From NCBI GenBank assembly GCA_003096255.1, contig PIXS01000058.1, positions 1 to 6,344 on the forward strand: a stretch of DNA of 6,344 bases, in the 5' to 3' direction. Source of the stretch: Candidatus Bathyarchaeum sp. GTDB lineage: Archaea > Thermoproteota > Bathyarchaeia > Bathyarchaeales > Bathyarchaeaceae. Positions 2 to 6,344 of this stretch are shown piece after piece (within the stretch, counting starts at the first letter, position 1; each line of letters opens with the position of its first letter). A program made the position numbers and the translations under genes. The notes beneath the pieces are model-generated. The model was not told the origin of the DNA. It saw only the letters and a program-made list of their open reading frames with translations, and made no database searches.

Positions 2-361
2 AACAGAAAAACCGTATCTGGTTTAGGTTTGCCGATGTTCAGAATTTCAAAAGATTCAGAAAAACTCGCAGACCTAATAGAGGCTAAAGGGTTTGCTATT
101 CTTCCTGATTTGCCTCACTGTGGTGAGTGCGGATTCAAAACATGTTATGAGTTGGCGAAGGCTTTGGTTGCGGATGAGCCTAACACAAAGGGTTGTCCGT
201 TGCTGTCCAAAGGCAAGTTTTCGATTGAGGTTAATGGCGAAGTTGTACCCCTCAAAGAATTTCCGCGTGAGTTCATACAGAAGACAGTAACAAGCTTGGT
301 TTCATCACTGCAGGACGTTCCCGAAATACGGACGTTAAAAATCAAGTTGGAAGACAAATAG
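2..361 (+). CDS. mobB: C-terminal part of a MobB-like molybdopterin-guanine dinucleotide biosynthesis protein with a 4Fe-4S domain (5' partial)
   Basis: The frame is open to the left edge with no stop, so 119 codons of a longer gene are visible. The visible part has a four-cysteine motif C-x2-C-x4-C-x16-C (visible residues 40, 43, 48, 65, beginning CGECGFKTC), the pattern of FeS-type [4Fe-4S] domains. A short beta-rich tail follows (FSIEVNGEVVPL, then a helix ending LKIKLEDK). From family knowledge, archaeal MobB proteins often join a P-loop GTPase to just this FeS domain and tail; MobB helps attach GMP to molybdopterin in the cytoplasm. The P-loop part would lie outside the window, so the assignment rests on the C-terminus alone. 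Internal starts at TTG 29 or ATG 35 would give a stand-alone protein of about 110 residues, but the open upstream frame and the conserved-looking GLP residues before them argue against that. A similar cysteine spacing occurs in CdhE-type proteins, whose size does not fit. It converges with ecfT, 5 bp away. Confidence 0.72.
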   Translation, partial: NRKTVSGLGLPMFRISKDSEKLADLIEAKGFAILPDLPHCGECGFKTCYELAKALVADEPNTKGCPLLSKGKFSIEVNGEVVPLKEFPREFIQKTVTSLVSSLQDVPEIRTLKIKLEDK

Positions 362-366
362 CTAGG

Positions 367-1158
367 TTAAACTATTTTCAGCAGGGAACCATACTGCCAA
401 AAAACGAATGCACACAAAACGGTTAAAGTCAGAGTCAAACTCATCAGCAGGTAATCAGTTTTTGACAAGGTTAAGGAGCGCATGTAGGTTCTTTCTTTTT
501 TGTATCTGAACGCGCGAGTTTCAAGGGCTACTGCAGAAGTTCTAGCCATAAGTAAATAGGTAATCAGCAGAGGAAGAAGCAGGGGCATGAAAGCCCGAAG
601 TTTTGTTACAACACTGCCCTTTTCTATTTCTAGTCCCCTTGTGGCCTGACCTAACATCACTTCTTTAGCTTGGTCGCGAATGTCAGGGATAAAACGGAGG
701 GCGATGTTGACCATGAATATCAAAGTAAAGGGCACATGTAGTCGCCGCATTGACAAAAGGAAGTCACGAGGGTTGGTTGTTAAACTGAAAATTGTTGAAG
801 AAACCATCAAAACTACGAAACGCAAACCTAAGGTCATACCGTAAACGATTCCATCTACGCTAAGCAGGTTGTAGTTTGCAAGAATCGGCCACGACTCAGG
901 TATTTGTAACAGAACAATTTTTGCAGAAAAGGGATAGAACACAGTTTGAGCTACCACAATTATTATGATGATGTACAGAAAGGGCTTGATGTATCCCCAT
1001 AGCTGCTCTGGAGGAATTTTTGAAACTGCAGACATAACTATGCAAACGAAAAGTAGCAACAAAAGAACAAACAAGTTTGGAAAAGCAATTGCAAGAGTTG
1101 AAACGCACATCACAATCAAAAATTTTGGCAAAGGATCAAGCCGATGCAAAAAAGACAT
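367..1158 (-). CDS. ecfT: Energy-coupling factor transporter transmembrane protein EcfT (CbiQ family)
   Basis: This 263-residue membrane protein is the coupling subunit of an ECF importer: it links the substrate-binding S component in the membrane to the two cytoplasmic ATPases. The N-terminus SFLHRLDPLPK matches the usual LHRLDP opening of the CbiQ/EcfT family. Hydrophobic segments lie at about residues 14-43, 58-76, 103-125, 143-158, 189-206 and 236-255. The two arginine signatures of the coupling helices are both present: ATRG at 172-175 and ETRAF at 213-217. From family knowledge these arginines dock into grooves of the ATPase pair. Length is typical of the family. It is the last gene of the operon, 29 bp after ecfA2; no clear Shine-Dalgarno precedes the ATG, so translation may depend on upstream genes. 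Family assignment is firm. The substrate is set by the S component, not by this protein. Confidence 0.93.
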   Translation of the reverse strand: MSFLHRLDPLPKFLIVMCVSTLAIAFPNLFVLLLLLFVCIVMSAVSKIPPEQLWGYIKPFLYIIIIIVVAQTVFYPFSAKIVLLQIPESWPILANYNLLSVDGIVYGMTLGLRFVVLMVSSTIFSLTTNPRDFLLSMRRLHVPFTLIFMVNIALRFIPDIRDQAKEVMLGQATRGLEIEKGSVVTKLRAFMPLLLPLLITYLLMARTSAVALETRAFRYKKERTYMRSLTLSKTDYLLMSLTLTLTVLCAFVFWQYGSLLKIV

Positions 1159-1187
1159 AGAAGTCTTGTCTGAGTCATAACGAGAAA

Positions 1188-2021
1188 TCAGCTCTGGTGC
1201 CTCCTTGAGTGTTCCTGAATAAACTTCGCCATGTCGTCTACCGAAAAAACGTTTGAAGGACAGCCTTTTTCTCTTAGCATTTCTCGAAGCTGCATTATGG
1301 GCGTAGGTTTAAGGCGCATCTGCTCAAGCAGTTTTGTGTCTCCCAAAATTTCAGTTGTTGGACCGTCAGCAACAATTTTGCCGTCATGAAGTGCAACAAT
1401 TCGTTGTGAATATGTAGCGATGTGACTGATGTTATGGCTGATAAGAATGACCAGTTTACCTTCGCTGTTAAGCTGTTTAACGAACTGCATTATTTTCATT
1501 GTTCGTTTGTAGTCTTGACCTCTCGTAGGTTCATCTAAAATTATTGTGCTCGGTTTCATGGCAAGAACAGAAGCTATAGCTACGCTTTGACGTTCACCAG
1601 AACTCAAACGGCGAGGATGAACGTCTTTGTAGCGTTCCAAACTAAGCAGCTTCAACGTTTTGCCTATACGGGCGTCAATTTCTTCTGAACCTAAACCTAG
1701 ATTTTTCAATCCAAAAGCGATTTCGTTTGTTACACTGTCACTAAACAGGTGATAATCGAAGTTCTGAAAGACGTAGCCAACCTCTTTCCCAAGCTCAGCA
1801 ACTGTGTATGCAAGATAGTCTTTTTCTTCAACAAGCACGCGTCCGCTGGTTGGCCTGAACATTCCTGTTAAAACTTTTGCTAGGGTTGTTTTGCCAGAGC
1901 CATTCCTGCCGATTATTGCAACAATTTCTCCGCAATTGAAGGAAACAGACACATCTTTCAGTGCATGGGTTCCATCGCGGTACACGTAACTGACGTCTTC
2001 GGCTTGTATTAAACTAGGCAT
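1188..2021 (-). CDS. ecfA2: ECF transporter ATP-binding protein, second ATPase (EcfA2-like)
   Basis: This 277-residue ABC ATPase powers the importer as a heterodimer with the preceding ATPase. Visible motifs are the A-loop tyrosine Y14, Walker A GRNGSGKT (38-45), Q-loop Q86 in VFQN, signature LSSGERQ (139-145), Walker B TIILDEPT (159-166) and switch histidine H196 in ISHN. The D-loop reads GQD at 168-170 where SALD/AGLD is commoner; I recall TRGQD from some ECF ATPases, so it does not suggest loss of function. The C-terminal 60 or so residues (PTPIMQLREML onward) are the extension typical of ECF ATPases. The ATG lies inside the upstream ATPase gene, giving an 8-bp overlap (2014-2021) that implies translational coupling and equal output of the pair. 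The A1/A2 numbering here follows gene order only. Confidence 0.94.
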   Translation of the reverse strand: MPSLIQAEDVSYVYRDGTHALKDVSVSFNCGEIVAIIGRNGSGKTTLAKVLTGMFRPTSGRVLVEEKDYLAYTVAELGKEVGYVFQNFDYHLFSDSVTNEIAFGLKNLGLGSEEIDARIGKTLKLLSLERYKDVHPRRLSSGERQSVAIASVLAMKPSTIILDEPTRGQDYKRTMKIMQFVKQLNSEGKLVILISHNISHIATYSQRIVALHDGKIVADGPTTEILGDTKLLEQMRLKPTPIMQLREMLREKGCPSNVFSVDDMAKFIQEHSRRHQS

Positions 2022-2859
2022 TTAATCTCATCACAATCAGTTCAAAGGCTTCAGACACTGTCAAAGGTGTTTTTTCAAAATCAAAACCACTGTCAACAAG
2101 TTTCTGAAATAACAAAGGAATCTGAGGCAAACCCAAACCTAAACTCTGAAAGAATTGACCCTTCGAGAAAACGTCATTGGGTGTACCGTTTACTTGTATT
2201 TGGCCGTCATTTAACAAAACAATTCTAGTAGCACAATCCACCAAAACATCCAAGTCGTGAGTGGCTAGAAGCACGGTAATTCCTTCTCGGTTTAGCTCTT
2301 TTAGAAAGCTAATTACACGCTCAGCGCTCTCTGAATCAAGATTCGACGTCGGCTCATCCAAAAGAAGAACTTTAGGCTTCATAGCAAGAACAGAAGCAAT
2401 CGCAACAAGCTGTTTCTGGCCTTCAGACAAATTGTTCGGCGATTTATACCGAAGTTCAGTTAATCCTGCTTTTTCCAAAATTCCGTCCACTCTACGCACA
2501 ATCTCGTCATGAGGCACACACAAGTTCTCAGGACCAAAGGCAACATCATCTTCAACTGTTTGAAAAAAGAGTTGCGAGTCAACTTCCTGAAAAACAATAC
2601 CTACAGAGGTTGCTAGCTCGCCTACTGGATGACTTTTTGTGTTTAAGCCATCAACAAAAACGTCGCCTTTGAGTTTGCCACGAAAATAGTGGGGAATAAG
2701 CCCGTTTATGAGCCTAAACAACGTGGTTTTGCCAGCACCAGTGCCTCCGATTATGCCCACGAATTCGCCAGAGTTGATCTCTAGGCTAAAGTCTTGGATT
2801 ACTGGCTTTTTGGCCAAGGGGTAAGTGTAAGTAACGTTTTTTATCTGAATTGCTTTCAA
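2014..2859 (-). CDS. ecfA1: ECF transporter ATP-binding protein, first ATPase (EcfA1-like), TTG start
   Basis: This 281-residue ABC ATPase has A-loop Y13, Walker A GGTGAGKT (38-45), Q-loop Q91 in VFQEVDSQLF, signature LSEGQKQ (144-150, with E where LSGGQ is standard), Walker B VLLLDEPT (164-171), a TSNLD D-loop ending at D175 and switch histidine H201 in ATHD. The Q-loop sequence with DSQLF is characteristic of EcfA/CbiO-type ATPases. The start is a TTG at 2859-2857: an in-frame TGA lies two codons upstream, so no earlier start exists, and the MKAIQIKNVTYTYP opening is the normal beginning of the domain. A short AGGT Shine-Dalgarno-like site overlaps the preceding stop. The gene lies 9 bp after a SUOX-like gene and overlaps ecfA2 by 8 bp, so the accessory proteins and the transporter are almost certainly on one transcript. 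Confidence 0.94.
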   Translation of the reverse strand: MKAIQIKNVTYTYPLAKKPVIQDFSLEINSGEFVGIIGGTGAGKTTLFRLINGLIPHYFRGKLKGDVFVDGLNTKSHPVGELATSVGIVFQEVDSQLFFQTVEDDVAFGPENLCVPHDEIVRRVDGILEKAGLTELRYKSPNNLSEGQKQLVAIASVLAMKPKVLLLDEPTSNLDSESAERVISFLKELNREGITVLLATHDLDVLVDCATRIVLLNDGQIQVNGTPNDVFSKGQFFQSLGLGLPQIPLLFQKLVDSGFDFEKTPLTVSEAFELIVMRLNA

Positions 2860-2866
2860 GTCTCAA

Positions 2867-2870
2867 ACCT
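2867..2870 (-). promoter_or_regulatory. Short Shine-Dalgarno-like AGGT for the TTG-started ecfA1
   Basis: AGGT on the minus strand lies 7 nt before the TTG at 2859 and overlaps the TAG stop of the preceding gene. It is weak, so re-initiation by ribosomes ending the upstream gene probably contributes. Confidence 0.4.
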
Positions 2871-3375
2871 AGCTAATTTCAATCAACACCACACTGGACA
2901 CCCAACGCTGAGCAAACTCATCAGAACCAATAACGAGACGCAATGGACCGTTTCCACCCTCAGAATAAGAAGCTAAGGCTTGTCCGTCTTTTTGGTAAAC
3001 TAGCATAATTTTTGGGTTCTCCATGATTTCGTCAACAGATAAAGTGATGGCGTAGCTGTCTATGGATTGGATGAACACTGATGAGGCATTTTCAGAAACG
3101 TCAGCAAGCTCTAAAAGACTTGCAACAGTAACCCCAGTGTAAGTGAACGTGCCTTCGTCTTCAACGTGAACAGCAGAATCCAAAGTTGCCTGCATGTCTG
3201 AAGAGGGCAAAGATTCAATCTCGCTCATAGTTAGATTCAACGGATTGTTCACTGTGCCTCCAATCTGCAGGGCGCCTTCTTGAACATCAACGGGTCGGGT
3301 GAAAAAGTATAGGGGAACTGCAACCGCAACAAGTAAAACAAAAACGATTACAGCAGTTTTAGTTCCTTTGTTCAT
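2869..3375 (-). CDS. Membrane-anchored protein with one sulfite-oxidase/molybdopterin-binding-like (SUOX-fold) domain, Mo-ligand cysteine absent
   Basis: This is a 168-residue protein. Residues 1-6 are basic and 7-26 form a hydrophobic segment acting as a membrane anchor or uncleaved signal. The rest is one domain resembling the oxidoreductase molybdopterin-binding family (PF00174): a beta start with NPLNLTMSEIESLPS, then FTYTGVTVASLLELADV (the W-x-G-v-x-L-x-x-LLe-x-AGV pattern), then GGNGPLRLVIG at 140-150 and VVLIEIS at the end (the G-G-P-L-R-L-V-v-P ... V-K-w-l-x-x-I-e pattern). True family enzymes hold molybdenum with a cysteine in an ECxGN-type motif; this protein contains no cysteine, so catalysis is unlikely. 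Two N-glycosylation sequons (N47, N96) suit an outside location. The ATG at 3375 is chosen over an in-frame GTG at 3387 because the GTG overlaps the best ribosome site, GTGGAG. Inference from the operon: a substrate-capture or accessory component of the ECF importer. Database names of the 'molybdopterin-dependent oxidoreductase' type would probably overstate what it does. Confidence 0.75.
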   Translation of the reverse strand: MNKGTKTAVIVFVLLVAVAVPLYFFTRPVDVQEGALQIGGTVNNPLNLTMSEIESLPSSDMQATLDSAVHVEDEGTFTYTGVTVASLLELADVSENASSVFIQSIDSYAITLSVDEIMENPKIMLVYQKDGQALASYSEGGNGPLRLVIGSDEFAQRWVSSVVLIEIS

Positions 3376-3381
3376 TTTGTG

Positions 3382-3387
3382 CTCCAC
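3382..3387 (-). promoter_or_regulatory. Shine-Dalgarno site that fixes the single-domain SUOX gene start
   Basis: GTGGAG on the minus strand has its GGAG core 6 nt before the ATG at 3375. Its GTG could itself be read as an in-frame start four codons earlier, but a start cannot serve as its own ribosome site, so the ATG is preferred. Confidence 0.65.
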
Positions 3388-3391
3388 TCGT

Positions 3392-4300
3392 TTAGTAGAC
3401 TTCTATTTGGGCAACCCATCGCACCCAGTATTGGCCCCATTTTAGCTCGGGGTCTTCCATGAACAAACGGAAAGGTCGACCGTCCTTAACTGTTAAGTGC
3501 TCGCCGTTTTCTAGGTAACCAATTAGCATGCCGTCAACTTGGGCTTGTATCATGTTGTATTCTTTGGAATATCCGTCGATGGCAGTAATTTTGATTTTGG
3601 TCGCAGTTTCAGAAACTCCAGCTACTTCTAGAATACTCCACAAATCTGCGCCAGTCCAGTTGGAGGTTCGTTGGGGTTCACCACCGGGAGCAAAAGCTAA
3701 CTGAACAGTTTTTGTTTCAAAGTCGGTTATGTCTAGTCCAGTTATGTTCAGGGGGGTTGAAACATCACCAGTTACTTGAATTACCCACAATCCAACGTTT
3801 AGACTAGCAACGTTTTTGATTTGAAACTGACTGGCAATGGAAGGAGCAATCAACTGAACTGGACCGCCAGTTTCTTCGGTCAGGTATTTGCCGTCTTTCA
3901 CGAAGGCCAGAATCATTTTTTCTTCAGGATATTGGGTGCTGTTCCAAGCCTGATACAGGTTTACTGTTTTGGAATAACCATCAGAAGCAGTTACTTCTAC
4001 AGGTCCAGCGTACCAGCTAACGCCGCTTCGTTCACAAAAGTCAGTAAACAAGACTCCAACATATGTCCCAGTTTCACCTTTGATGGTGTGGGTCACATTA
4101 GTTAGAGGCATTTCAGTCATGTCACTAACAGACACAACTGTAGTAGTTGCGCCGCCTCCTGAAACGATGACATCCCAATCAGGAGCGTCCCCTGAAGGAA
4201 GCAAACTGTTTCCAGAAGAAGAGGGAAAAAGCAGGTAAGCTCCTGCAGATACTCCAATTATCGCTATAACGATTACAGCTATGACTATTTTGTTGTCCAT
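3392..4300 (-). CDS. Membrane-anchored protein with two tandem SUOX/molybdopterin-binding-like domains, probable extracytoplasmic ECF partner
   Basis: This is a 302-residue protein. Residues 4-26 form one hydrophobic segment (MDNKIVIAVIVIAII...), an N-terminal anchor, followed by a Ser/Gly-rich linker to about 38. Two related domains follow, about 41-177 and 178-302. They share ASDGYSKT (105-112) and AIDGYSKE (240-247), a following acidic/hydrophobic strand (MILAFVKDG, MLIGYLENG), and the GGPVQLIAP (145-153) / GRPFRLFME (274-282) strand. Domain 2 also shows WTGADLWSILEVAGV, the PF00174-like W-x-G-x-x-L-x-x-LLe-x-AGV pattern. The only cysteine, C89, sits in a helix (DFCERSG), not at the molybdenum-ligand position. 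Four N-X-S/T sequons (N68, N120, N185, N214) fit an extracellular location. The ATG at 4300 was chosen because GAGGAA lies 6 nt before it and the hydrophobic anchor starts there; a longer frame from 4372 would overlap the S-component gene. It follows the S component by 10 bp. Role inferred from context: ligand capture for the ECF importer. The ligand is unknown. Confidence 0.75.
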   Translation of the reverse strand: MDNKIVIAVIVIAIIGVSAGAYLLFPSSSGNSLLPSGDAPDWDVIVSGGGATTTVVSVSDMTEMPLTNVTHTIKGETGTYVGVLFTDFCERSGVSWYAGPVEVTASDGYSKTVNLYQAWNSTQYPEEKMILAFVKDGKYLTEETGGPVQLIAPSIASQFQIKNVASLNVGLWVIQVTGDVSTPLNITGLDITDFETKTVQLAFAPGGEPQRTSNWTGADLWSILEVAGVSETATKIKITAIDGYSKEYNMIQAQVDGMLIGYLENGEHLTVKDGRPFRLFMEDPELKWGQYWVRWVAQIEVY

Positions 4301-4306
4301 AATTTT

Positions 4307-4312
4307 TTCCTC
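4307..4312 (-). promoter_or_regulatory. Shine-Dalgarno site that fixes the tandem SUOX gene start
   Basis: GAGGAA on the minus strand lies 6 nt before the ATG at 4300 and overlaps the TGA stop of the S-component gene. This supports the 4300 start over an upstream one at 4372 and suggests coupled translation. Confidence 0.7.
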
Positions 4313-4868
4313 ATAATCCAAGTTTTTTACATTCAACCAACAACGTGTTAGCGATAACACCCCCCAAACCACCGCTTATCGCAGCTAGTACCAAAGAGAA
4401 GATAAGAGGAACCAAGGGCAGCATTAGAACCAATGTTCCAACCAAGGCAGTTCCCACGAAGTTAGCTACAGAAGAAGCTCCAAAACAGCAACCCACACAA
4501 CAGGCTTTGTGTCTAGACAATAGGAAGAAGAGGTCTATTGCTACTCCGGGGCAGAGGTAAATTATGAAGGATAGTATGCCAAAGTTTCCAACTGGAAACA
4601 GGAGGCTGATTACTGCTTGTGTAAAGGCTGTGAGGCTAGCAGCTCCTGGCTTTCTTACAAGACCGTAAGCCATTACTGGCCACATCATGTATAGTCCCCC
4701 GGCTACGGCTCCAGTGGGAATGTAGAGGGAAGCGGTTATTACGCCTACGACTGGGCGAATGATACTTTTTGTGGCTAAGCCTAGACCTGCTAAGAGGGCC
4801 ATGGTGACTAGGTCGACTGTGGTTGTGTTCCAGATGTTTTGTGGGGGGCTTTGGTTTTTTGGTTTCAT
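4311..4868 (-). CDS. ECF transporter S component (substrate-specificity subunit), YkoE/ABC_cobalt-like
   Basis: This is a 185-residue integral membrane protein with about six hydrophobic segments (roughly 19-36, 38-56, 58-71, 79-95, 98-118, 130-175 as two helices). The stretch MMWPVMAYGLVRKPGAASL (61-79) and the following helix resemble the W...AAYMIRKPGAAL region of Bacillus YkoE, the S component proposed for thiamine or hydroxymethylpyrimidine; archaeal relatives carry only generic names. Its place as first gene of an operon with two EcfA ATPases and EcfT supports an S-component role strongly, but the substrate cannot be named. The start at 4868 gives a soluble N-terminus with KPKNQSPPQ ahead of the first helix; the longer frame to 5093 is rejected because it runs through the control region and antisense to hypF. 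There is no Shine-Dalgarno, consistent with a nearly leaderless transcript. Odd feature: a CCVGCC cysteine cluster at residues 123-128, just after the RHK loop. Confidence 0.82.
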   Translation of the reverse strand: MKPKNQSPPQNIWNTTTVDLVTMALLAGLGLATKSIIRPVVGVITASLYIPTGAVAGGLYMMWPVMAYGLVRKPGAASLTAFTQAVISLLFPVGNFGILSFIIYLCPGVAIDLFFLLSRHKACCVGCCFGASSVANFVGTALVGTLVLMLPLVPLIFSLVLAAISGGLGGVIANTLLVECKKLGL

Positions 4869-4997: not shown

Positions 4998-6344
4998 TTG
5001 CATACCGAGGTTCTTGTTACGGGTATAGTTCAGGGTGTCGGTTTTCGGCCATTTGTCTACCGAACAGCAGTAAAAAACGGGCTGGTAGGCCATGTCAGAA
5101 ACAGGGGAGACGCAATCGTAGAAATCGCACTAGAAGGGCCTCAAACAAAAATTAACAAATTCATAGAAGAGCTGAAAACCCAAAAACCTGTCTTGGCGCA
5201 TATTTACAACATCAAAACTGAAAACCGCCAACAAGAAAAGGGCTTTACTGAGTTCAAGATAATACAAAGCTCTGGAGAGGCAAAACTTTCGGGTTCTGTT
5301 GTGCCTCCTGATGTTTCAATCTGTGATGAGTGCCTAAAGGAGCTTCGTGACCCTAAAGACAGGCGGTTTGACTACTTTTTCATTACCTGCACAGATTGTG
5401 GACCCAGATACACTACAATCAAGAACCTGCCCTACGACAGGCCAAACACGACAATGCAAGAGTTTCCAATGTGTGAATCATGTGCCAAGGACTATAGTGA
5501 CCCCTTGAACCGTAGATTTCATGCCCAAACAGTAGCGTGTCCAGTTTGTGGGCCAAAAGTTTACCTCGCATCAAACAAAGGAGAACCCATCGAATCTGAA
5601 GACCCCATCAGGGAAACAGGAAGGCTCCTCGAAGAAGGCAGTATTGTAGCGATTAAGGGAAATGGGGGGTTTCATGTTGCCACAGCGACAACAAAAGGCG
5701 AACCTGTTGCGCGGTTACGAAAAGACAAGCACAGAAAACAAAAGCCCTTTGCAGTTATGGCCAAAAACTTAGACACTGTAAGGTCTTTTGCTGAGGTAAG
5801 CCATTGGGAAGCCGAACTGCTTACTTCTTATCGTAAGCCGATTGTTCTGCTCAAAAAAAGCAAAGGTTATTGCCTTTCGGAACTTGTTGCGCCCGAACTT
5901 GACAGGGTTGGCGTGATGCTTCCGTACACTGGGCTTCATACAATACTTTTTGACAAAACTGAGGAGCCAGCCTTTGTTATGACCAGTGCAAACCCGCCCA
6001 GCGAGCCCATAGTCACAGACAACGACGAAGCGGTTACCAAGCTTGGTGATTCTGTGGACTACTTTTTGTTCCATAACCGTCAGATTGCCCAAAGGTGTGA
6101 CGATTCAGTTGTTCGTTTTCATGGAAAAAACCCGTCCTTGATTCGGCGCTCAAGAGGCTACGCCCCAGAACCCATTATATTGAAGCAGGTTTCCAACCGA
6201 TGCGTACTAGCAGTTGGAGGGGAACTAAACGTTACTTCTTGCGTTTTAACCCAAAACAGGGCGTTTATTTCCCAGCACATCGGGGACGTGGAAAACTTGG
6301 AAAACCTGCGTTTTCACAAAGACGCAATAGCTCACCTGACAAAA
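4998..6344 (+). CDS. hypF: Carbamoyltransferase HypF, [NiFe]-hydrogenase maturation (3' partial)
   Basis: The first 449 codons of a protein usually about 750 residues long; the frame is open at the right edge. HypF uses carbamoyl phosphate and ATP to carbamoylate the HypE C-terminal cysteine, the source of the cyanide ligands of the NiFe site. Visible domains in order: acylphosphatase-like (1 to about 90; VQGVGFRPFVYR with R17, and N35 in VRNRG); a zinc-finger pair with C-x2-C-x18-C-x2-C-x24-C-x2-C-x18-C-x2-C at 109, 112, 131, 134, 159, 162, 181, 184, exactly canonical; a YrdC-like domain from about 202 (IKGNGGFH at 219-226, KPFAVM, MTSANPPSEPI, RCDDSVVR, RRSRGYAPEP); and the start of the Kae1-like domain at about 402 (LAVGGELN, then SQHIGD). 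At the usual GAELKNT position this protein has GGELNVT. The start is taken as TTG 4998, since no ATG or GTG precedes the acylphosphatase motif after the stop at 4947; GGGAG lies 11 nt upstream. It is divergent from the ECF operon. Confidence 0.96.
   Translation, partial: MHTEVLVTGIVQGVGFRPFVYRTAVKNGLVGHVRNRGDAIVEIALEGPQTKINKFIEELKTQKPVLAHIYNIKTENRQQEKGFTEFKIIQSSGEAKLSGSVVPPDVSICDECLKELRDPKDRRFDYFFITCTDCGPRYTTIKNLPYDRPNTTMQEFPMCESCAKDYSDPLNRRFHAQTVACPVCGPKVYLASNKGEPIESEDPIRETGRLLEEGSIVAIKGNGGFHVATATTKGEPVARLRKDKHRKQKPFAVMAKNLDTVRSFAEVSHWEAELLTSYRKPIVLLKKSKGYCLSELVAPELDRVGVMLPYTGLHTILFDKTEEPAFVMTSANPPSEPIVTDNDEAVTKLGDSVDYFLFHNRQIAQRCDDSVVRFHGKNPSLIRRSRGYAPEPIILKQVSNRCVLAVGGELNVTSCVLTQNRAFISQHIGDVENLENLRFHKDAIAHLTK

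What the first reader, a model, noticed from the sequence alone, without database searches (positions are those of the whole stretch)
367..4868. ECF importer co-transcribed with two extracellular SUOX-fold proteins: candidate undescribed uptake system
Seen: a complete ECF set (S component, two ATPases, EcfT) in one tight operon, with two membrane-anchored proteins inserted between the S gene and the ATPase genes. Family knowledge: ECF importers bind substrate directly in the S component and normally lack extracytoplasmic binding proteins. Inference: the three SUOX-like domains capture a ligand outside the cell and hand it to the S component, or help it fold or dock. The SUOX fold binds a pterin cofactor in enzymes, so a pterin-like ligand is one option; the YkoE resemblance suggests a thiamine/pyrimidine-like one. 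Neither is shown.
Basis: partly seen in the sequence, partly recalled or inferred. Interest (0 to 1): 0.75.

Follow-up and report, generated by a model that had tools for sequence, protein, structure and literature searches.

The report
Candidate importer of molybdenum/tungsten pterin cofactor
This archaeal gene cluster looks like a membrane importer, with capture proteins outside the cell, that scavenges the pterin cofactor of molybdenum and tungsten enzymes (or a close derivative) from the surroundings, which could explain how some microbes that lack the genes to make this cofactor still use those enzymes.

Summary
In detail: a minus-strand operon (367-4868) encodes a YkoE-fold ECF S component, two membrane-anchored proteins with three SUOX-fold domains, two ECF ATPases and EcfT. 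Relatives tie it to Mo/W pterin cofactor metabolism: a Moco riboswitch lies upstream in 14 of 14 close bacterial relatives; neighbours include MobB/FeS, MoeA, AFOR, a phosphodiesterase and a small kinase. Of 13 Bathyarchaeia genomes with this S component (250 searched) all have AFOR, but 9 lack MoaA and MoaC (S-negative with AFOR: 20 of 212). The SUOX domains lack the metal-ligand cysteine and resemble PruR, a pterin binder; YkoE's thiamine ligands are not kept. Best explanation: a salvage importer; cofactor is trimmed outside, captured by the SUOX proteins, imported by the ECF complex and, in bacteria, rephosphorylated. Ligand and transport are inferred, not shown. Main rival: molybdate/tungstate import (SUOX2 relatives also sit beside tungstate-transporter genes). 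Against: 4 of 13 carriers keep MoaA; in Clostridia MoaA absence is not enriched (7 of 13 versus 139 of 183); most archaeal relatives lack an adjacent motor. The window's own genome is not held. Ten searches of open-licence papers listed no description.

The parts
4311..4868 (-). ECF S component, YkoE fold, 185 aa, six predicted helices
4485..4511 (-). His-x2-Cys-Cys-x2-Cys-Cys motif (residues 120-128) between helices 4 and 5 of the S component; metal or thiol site is only a guess
   Evidence: invariant in 32 of 32 rows of close relatives; His120, Cys123, Cys124 and Cys127 each in 11 of 17 rows and Cys128 in 13 of 17 once bacteria are added
3392..4300 (-). SUOX2: membrane-anchored protein with two SUOX-fold domains (about 3788-4174 and 3395-3787)
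   Evidence: PF00174 two stretches; model pLDDT 84.3; sulfite dehydrogenase and PruR folds
2869..3375 (-). SUOX1: membrane-anchored protein with one SUOX-fold domain
   Evidence: PF00174 E 2e-14; family alignment A3; profile match of that alignment to PruR 7kos E 1.5e-6
2014..2859 (-). ECF ATPase (EcfA1-like), TTG start
   Evidence: TIGR04520 E 1e-77, below its curated cut-off
1188..2021 (-). ECF ATPase (EcfA2-like)
   Evidence: TIGR04521 E 9e-72, below its curated cut-off
367..1158 (-). EcfT transmembrane component
   Evidence: PF02361 E 1e-29
2..361 (+). C-terminal part of a MobB/FeS protein, cut by the window edge; recurrent neighbour, likely functional partner
   Evidence: PF04060 E 3.5e-8, PRK14494 MobB/FeS model E 2.6e-17; complete relative L001:12162-12938 has MobB E 1.9e-26 plus FeS
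4998..6344 (+). hypF (hydrogenase maturation), cut by the window edge; divergent neighbour, probably not part of the system
   Evidence: TIGR00143 E 7e-173; among the S loci fetched, beside S only in the window and in genomes G001, G056, G141 and G065

Best explanation
The cluster encodes an ECF-type importer that salvages the pterin part of the molybdenum/tungsten cofactor. In bacterial relatives an exported phosphodiesterase/nucleotide pyrophosphatase first trims environmental cofactor (nucleotide or phosphate removed; inferred). Membrane-anchored SUOX-fold proteins without the metal-binding cysteine capture the pterin, much as PruR binds pterins in the periplasm (inferred from fold and residues). 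The YkoE-fold S component takes the pterin over and the EcfA/EcfA/EcfT motor drives it in (inferred from family). Inside, a small RIO/APH-like kinase in bacterial clusters would put the phosphate back, and MobB/FeS, MobA and MoeA finish nucleotide and metal loading (inferred). Shown here: gene content, fold, lack of the cysteine, riboswitch placement, and absence of MoaA/MoaC in many carriers that still have AFOR. Whether the import form is metal-free molybdopterin, a dephosphorylated form, or the complete Mo/W cofactor is open; absence of MoeA_N in some carriers points to a metal-loaded form there.
For: 1) Moco/tungsten riboswitch RF01055 on the same strand upstream of the S gene in 14 of 14 close bacterial relatives (L007-L009, L052-L062): 6 to 163 bases away in 6, overlapping the ORF start in 2, and 1.8-2.9 kb away in the 6 clusters that begin with other genes. 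2) Neighbours confirmed by profile: MobB/FeS, MoeA, MobA-like, FdhD, ThiF-type, AFOR, phosphodiesterase/nucleotide pyrophosphatase; ModE-type repressor domain, below its cut-off; molybdopterin oxidoreductase with MobA and MobB in L061. 3) Of 13 S-positive Bathyarchaeia genomes all 13 have AFOR_N; 9 of 13 lack both MoaA and MoaC, against 20 of 212 S-negative AFOR-positive genomes; the same 9 lack MoaE. G065, the closest relative with the window's gene order, lacks MoaA, MoaC, MoaE and MoeA_N but has AFOR_N. Clostridia G007 and G008 show the same five results. 4) MoaA absence is spread over the S tree: at least 5 changes, 3 forced by well supported branches. 5) Fold match to pterin-binding PruR 7kom/7rkb/7kos; no cysteine in the metal-ligand stretch in 18 of 18 SUOX1 and 31 of 31 SUOX2 rows, while Asp106, Tyr108 and Trp158 of SUOX1 are invariant; Asp106/Tyr108 align with residues that I take for PruR Asn102/Tyr104. 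6) A kinase-like gene downstream in 10 of 10 close bacterial loci whose 3' part is visible: a phosphoesterase-import-kinase set fits an organic cofactor better than an oxyanion.
Against: No binding or transport data. Four of 13 S-positive Bathyarchaeia genomes, and G004 outside that sample, keep MoaA, MoaC and MoaE. In the Clostridia order 6 of 13 carriers have MoaA, and MoaA absence is not enriched (7 of 13 carriers versus 139 of 183 non-carriers); enzyme content of the non-carriers was not tested. SUOX2 relatives in three MoaA-positive genomes lie in a locus with tungstate-transporter genes (WtpA, WtpB by profile in L091; L092 and L093 by eye). Two TupA-like genes precede the S-like gene in L012. 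PruR's own site is said to be probably too small for Moco. No EcfT hit in 11 of 12 archaeal genomes with several kb of flank fetched (one, G002, is cut right after SUOX1); elsewhere in those genomes was not searched. No riboswitch at the archaeal loci scanned. No kinase or phosphodiesterase of the bacterial type was seen in the archaeal clusters. The phosphodiesterase is missing from 4 of the 14 close bacterial loci (L053, L055, L061, L062). Many genomes are MAGs of unknown completeness.
Confidence: 0.64

Rival explanations
1. It imports the metal as molybdate or tungstate: the SUOX proteins bind the oxyanion (or strip it from organic complexes) and the ECF complex carries it in, as a replacement or helper for ModABC/WtpABC/TupABC.
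For: SUOX2 relatives beside WtpA/WtpB in L091; TupA-like genes upstream of the S-like gene in L012 and, by eye, L017; Moco riboswitches are known to control molybdate transporters too (PMC2408646 passages); a ModE-type repressor gene is upstream of S in archaeal loci.
Against: Does not explain carriers with AFOR but without MoaA, MoaC and MoaE, nor the phosphodiesterase and kinase in the bacterial clusters. ECF importers of oxyanions are not known to me (recalled).
Confidence: 0.2
2. It imports or senses another pterin (for example a tetrahydropterin of the PruR type) or works as an extracytoplasmic redox/sensing device linked to Mo/W supply; the S component without nearby ATPases in most archaea would be a receptor rather than a pump.
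For: PruR binds small tetrahydropterins and signals through DcpA (PMC13259868 passages); FMN_bind (RnfG-like) genes sit in several Clostridia clusters; 11 of 12 archaeal genomes examined lack an EcfT hit nearby.
Against: Window, L065 and the 10 close bacterial loci with visible 3' ends do have EcfT; no signalling domain among the window's eight scanned proteins; MoaA/MoaC absence is then unexplained.
Confidence: 0.1
3. A YkoE-type thiamine or HMP importer with accessory proteins.
For: PF09819 membership; best fold match is YkoE.
Against: None of the five YkoE thiamine ligands is kept in the profile alignment (Trp49 to Tyr60, Tyr46 to Gly57, Glu77 to Ser88, Gln95 to Pro107, Asp131 to Thr140), though that alignment is weak (E 0.019) and its numbering offset of two is my inference; no TPP riboswitch in 31 loci plus window, Moco riboswitches instead.
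Confidence: 0.03

Closest known systems
YkoEDC, group I ECF thiamine importer (Bacillus subtilis)
   Different: Thiamine ligands replaced; SUOX proteins, Moco riboswitch (bacteria) and Moco biosynthesis genes around it; in most archaeal relatives no motor genes adjacent
PruR, periplasmic pterin-binding protein (Agrobacterium and other Proteobacteria)
   Same: SUOX fold without the metal-ligand Cys, N-terminal membrane/export stretch, probable Tyr of the pterin site conserved
   Different: Linked to an ECF importer instead of the DcpA regulator; two-domain and multi-domain forms; the size of the pterin pocket is unknown here
Sulfite oxidase/YedY family (PF00174 enzymes)
   Same: Fold (2blf, 1xdy) and Pfam family
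   Different: No Cys in the ligand stretch in 49 of 49 rows, so not expected to be an enzyme of this type
ModABC, WtpABC, TupABC molybdate/tungstate transporters
   Same: Mo/W metabolism, riboswitch or ModE-type control; WtpA/B-like genes beside SUOX2 in L091
   Different: ECF architecture; SUOX proteins in place of ModA/TupA-type binding proteins in the window
Moco biosynthesis pathway (MoaA, MoaC, MoaE, MoeA, MobA/B)
   Same: Late-step genes are neighbours
   Different: The importer occurs in several genomes in which the early steps were not found

Membership tests
ECF transporter (group I: own motor in the operon) | S component, two ECF ATPases and EcfT encoded together | tested here: met
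   window; L065 and the close bacterial loci with visible 3' ends; not seen in 11 of 12 other archaeal genomes' flanks
ECF transporter (group I: own motor in the operon) | S component fold | tested here: met
ECF transporter (group I: own motor in the operon) | ATP-driven uptake of a small molecule | not testable with these tools
   needs experiment
YkoE thiamine importer | thiamine ligands Tyr46, Trp49, Glu77, Gln95, Asp131 (PMC5037267, passages) | tested here: not met
   0 of 5 kept by the profile alignment; the alignment is weak (E 0.019), so single positions may be off
PruR pterin-binding protein | SUOX fold, no metal-ligand Cys | tested here: met
   0 of 18 SUOX1 and 0 of 31 SUOX2 rows with Cys in the stretch; the stretch was placed by alignment with sulfite dehydrogenase for SUOX1 and by eye for SUOX2
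PruR pterin-binding protein | pterin-site Tyr104 | tested here: met
   Tyr108 of SUOX1, 18 of 18, aligns with chain residue Tyr85 of 7kos, which is Tyr104 if the chain is offset by 19 (my inference from the N-D-Y pattern)
PruR pterin-binding protein | pterin-site Trp160 | tested here: inconclusive
   Trp158 of SUOX1 is invariant, but the alignment shown ends before PruR Trp160
PruR pterin-binding protein | gene pair with a DcpA-type regulator | tested here: not met
   the eight window proteins scanned are ECF, SUOX, MobB/FeS and HypF, none a DcpA-type regulator; related loci were not searched for one
Sulfite oxidase/YedY enzymes | Cys ligand to Mo/W | tested here: not met
Moco/tungsten-cofactor regulon | RF01055 riboswitch upstream | tested here: met
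   14 of 14 close bacterial loci; none in the window or in the 7 loci of S-positive Bathyarchaeia scanned: L001, L005, L063, L064, L066, L068, L069
Cofactor salvage system | carriers use the cofactor but lack its early biosynthesis | tested here: inconclusive
   met in 9 of 13 S-positive Bathyarchaeia and in G006-G008; not in 4 of 13 and G004; MoaA absence not enriched in Clostridia; the window's genome is not held

The most novel reading that the evidence does not exclude
Some archaea and Clostridia are obligate scavengers of finished tungsten or molybdenum cofactor: they lack MoaA, MoaC, MoaE and MoeA, yet run AFOR enzymes on metal-loaded pterin taken from dead cells or partners through a PruR-like SUOX/ECF importer. 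To my knowledge this would be the first importer of the Mo/W pterin cofactor, and it would imply a shared extracellular pool of it.
Probability: 0.4. Interest if true: 0.93.

Novelty: new variant of a known kind. Interest (0 to 1): 0.86.

Why it matters
About three hundred sequenced prokaryotes were recorded in 2018 with Moco enzymes but no complete Moco pathway ('orphan molybdoproteins'; the authors warn that some genomes are incomplete; [quoted passage not shown] Moco is generally regarded as too unstable to be shared (recalled). An importer with exported pterin-capture proteins would give a mechanism for both, add an ECF substrate class with extracytoplasmic capture proteins, and predict cofactor dependence that bears on cultivating Bathyarchaeia: the cultured relative B. 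tardum was grown with yeast extract, sterile sediment and a methanogen partner, and its authors report gaps in several cofactor pathways (PMC10477458, passages; words beginning 'molybd' or 'tungst' do not occur in that paper).

Tried and rejected

Rows dropped before counts: in the 250 Bathyarchaeia genomes, 12 of the 25 genomes with an S match (E 3e-12 or weaker; the 13 kept have E below 1e-37); in the Clostridia order 2 of 15 (G365, G405); G227's partial S left out of the tree.
Full report
What is there. The window is most likely from a Bathyarchaeia genome; no whole genome is held for it, and the nearest named proteins are Bathyarchaeota. Six minus-strand genes run without real gaps: S component, two-domain SUOX protein (SUOX2), one-domain SUOX protein (SUOX1), two ECF ATPases, EcfT. 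To the left, on the other strand, is the C-terminal part of a MobB/FeS protein; to the right, divergent, hypF.

Conservation. One scan of named genome contigs with the S alignment gave 19 loci: six from Bathyarchaeia MAGs (L001-L006; L002 is a second assembly of the L001 lineage), the rest titled as Bacillota and other Clostridia-like bacteria, a Planctomycete, an archaeon with a Hermod isolate name and others. A SUOX-profile hit lies in the fetched stretch of 16 of 19 (all but L012, L013 and L017; L013 is a short contig). In 250 genomes of the class of Ca. Bathyarchaeum tardum (G001) a close S component (E below 1e-37) occurs in 13; 12 further genomes with matches of E 3e-12 or weaker were left out as other PF09819-type proteins. 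SUOX1 lies beside S in 13 of 13, and SUOX2 beside S in 8 of 13. In 196 genomes of the order of G007 (Clostridia) a close S component occurs in 13; two weaker ones were left out. Among the 14 close bacterial loci (L007-L009, L052-L062) a SUOX-family hit is present in 12; L059 is cut after two genes of the cluster and L062 shows none (in L061 the hit is weak, E 1.3e-4, without Pfam support, next to a protein with a sub-threshold PF00174 hit). EcfT follows in the 10 of these 14 loci whose 3' end is visible. In archaea only the window and G065 show the motor beside S; 11 of 12 archaeal genomes with several kb of flank show no EcfT hit (G002 is cut right after SUOX1), and I could not search the rest of those genomes (cap reached).

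Regulation and neighbours. Rfam at gathering thresholds finds the Moco/tungsten riboswitch RF01055 upstream on the same strand in 14 of 14 close bacterial loci. It is also found in the more distant L010 (9.2 kb upstream of S, and again downstream), L012 and L017, not in L011, L013-L016, L018 or L019, and not in the window or the other archaeal loci scanned (L001, L005, L063, L064, L066, L068, L069). In L009, L053 and L054 the optional stem P3 is missing from the alignment, whereas L055, L062 and, less clearly, L058 have it (my reading of the alignments); P3-lacking RNAs go with tungsten cofactor genes in the original description (PMC2408646, passages). In archaea a gene matching the ModE repressor domain (two tested, E 8e-17 and 1e-18, below its cut-off) lies just upstream of S in L021, L022, L024, L028 and L030. 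Profile-confirmed neighbours: MobB plus FeS (L001), MoeA (L007), MobA-like and FdhD (L005), ThiF-type (L009), AFOR (L008), phosphodiesterase/nucleotide pyrophosphatase (L007, L056), FMN_bind (L007). By similarity to the L009 gene the phosphodiesterase is also in L052, L054 and L057-L060; its export signal is judged by eye. A small kinase-like gene follows in 10 of 10 close bacterial loci whose 3' end is visible, and in L012. Six were scanned and five of the six pass the cut-off of RIO1, APH or ABC1 (not L012); the other five rest on the alignment alone. Its D, RNF and DFE positions are invariant in 11 of 11 rows and the N of D-x-N is kept in 10.

Who carries it. All 13 S-positive Bathyarchaeia have AFOR_N (weakly in G227); 9 of 13 lack both MoaA and MoaC, against 20 of 212 S-negative AFOR-positive genomes (Fisher p 1.5e-6, not corrected for kinship or genome completeness). 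The MoaA profile is found in 193 of 250 of these genomes and in 11 of 14 named controls, so the search is not blind to the group. The nine also lack MoaE. Five of the nine lack MoeA_N (G001, G003, G056, G065, G141); G001, G056 and G141 have identical S proteins and count as near-copies. Among other carriers, G006, G007 and G008 lack MoaA, MoaC and MoaE with AFOR_N present, G007 and G008 lack MoeA_N as well, and G014 (L016) lacks all four with AFOR_N present. G012 (L014) lacks all four and AFOR_N too. Against the salvage reading, G004, G005, G132, G158 and G187 carry S and keep MoaA, MoaC and MoaE; several distant carriers keep MoaA (G009-G011, G013, G015-G017); and in the Clostridia order MoaA is absent in 7 of 13 carriers but also in 139 of 183 non-carriers, whose enzyme content I could not test (cap reached). 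In four of those seven a Mo/W enzyme gene lies in or near the importer cluster: AFOR in G007 (L008), G008 (about 5 kb from S) and G393 (L060), a molybdopterin oxidoreductase with MobA and MobB in G331 (L061). On a tree of 27 S proteins plus the window's, the MoaA label changes at least five times, three of them forced by well supported branches. The window's S is nearest to that of G065 (73%), which lacks MoaA, MoaC, MoaE and MoeA_N and has AFOR_N.

Structure and residues. The S model (pLDDT 82.4) is a YkoE-type S component. The profile alignment with YkoE (E 0.019) puts Gly57, Tyr60, Ser88, Pro107 and Thr140 where YkoE has its thiamine ligands Tyr46, Trp49, Glu77, Gln95 and Asp131 (PMC5037267, passages; chain numbers shifted by two, my inference). 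Gly57, Tyr60, Gln84, Tyr104, Pro107 and Asn136 are invariant in 17 of 17 archaeal and bacterial rows, consistent with one different ligand. The SUOX2 model (pLDDT 84.3) matches sulfite dehydrogenases first and also the pterin-binding PruR proteins 7kom, 7rkb (with neopterin) and 7kos, one domain at a time. PruR lacks the metal-ligand Cys and uses Tyr104 and Trp160 (PMC13259868, passages). Our proteins lack the Cys in 49 of 49 rows and keep Asp106/Tyr108 (aligned with what I take for Asn102/Tyr104) and an invariant Trp158.

Interpretation. Riboswitch, neighbours and missing early biosynthesis put the system in Mo/W pterin cofactor metabolism; this step I hold to be near certain for the bacterial relatives and likely for the window. 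That the imported compound is the pterin rather than the metal is inferred from the missing MoaA/MoaC, the PruR-like capture domains, and the phosphodiesterase and kinase. The metal rival is real: in G005, G132 and G187, which keep MoaA, SUOX2 relatives lie apart from S in a locus with a metallophosphoesterase, a multi-SUOX protein and WtpA/WtpB-like genes (profile-confirmed for L091 only), and L012 has two TupA-like genes before its S-like gene. One reading that joins both is that SUOX proteins capture Mo/W pterin generally, with either the pterin (ECF) or the released metal (Wtp) taken in; this is not tested.

Novelty. ECF importers, PruR and Moco riboswitches are known separately. Ten literature searches listed no description of the combination; listings were capped and the library holds open-licence papers only. 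I therefore call it a new variant of a known kind, with a bold case (finished-cofactor scavenging) that is not excluded.

Noticed in passing
L091:3355-10880, L092, L093: SUOX2 relative in a locus with a calcineurin-like phosphoesterase, a 700-aa multi-SUOX protein and WtpA/WtpB-like tungstate transporter genes, in MoaA-positive genomes.
   Followed up: partly
L010:15251-16034: A Moco riboswitch directly upstream of a second, different ECF S component (PF12822), followed by a xanthine-dehydrogenase-type molybdoenzyme: perhaps another Mo-related ECF importer.
   Followed up: partly
L012:7867-11062 and L017:7645-11023: Riboswitch, TupA-like tungstate-binding genes (profile for L012, by eye for L017), then a larger YkoE-like S gene with fused ATPase and EcfT.
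   Followed up: partly
window 4485-4511 (S component): His-x2-Cys-Cys-x2-Cys-Cys motif, invariant in close relatives and lost in some Clostridia; role unknown.
   Followed up: partly
20 S-negative Bathyarchaeia genomes, for example G111, G134, G178: AFOR present but MoaA and MoaC not found and no close S component: incomplete MAGs or another cofactor source.
   Followed up: no
L007:7828-8298, L009, L052, L053, L060: FMN_bind (RnfG-like) gene at or near the start of several Clostridia clusters; possibly keeps the pterin reduced.
   Followed up: partly
window 4998-6344; L001, L026, L027, L065: hypF divergent from S only in the Bathyarchaeum-like loci.
   Followed up: partly
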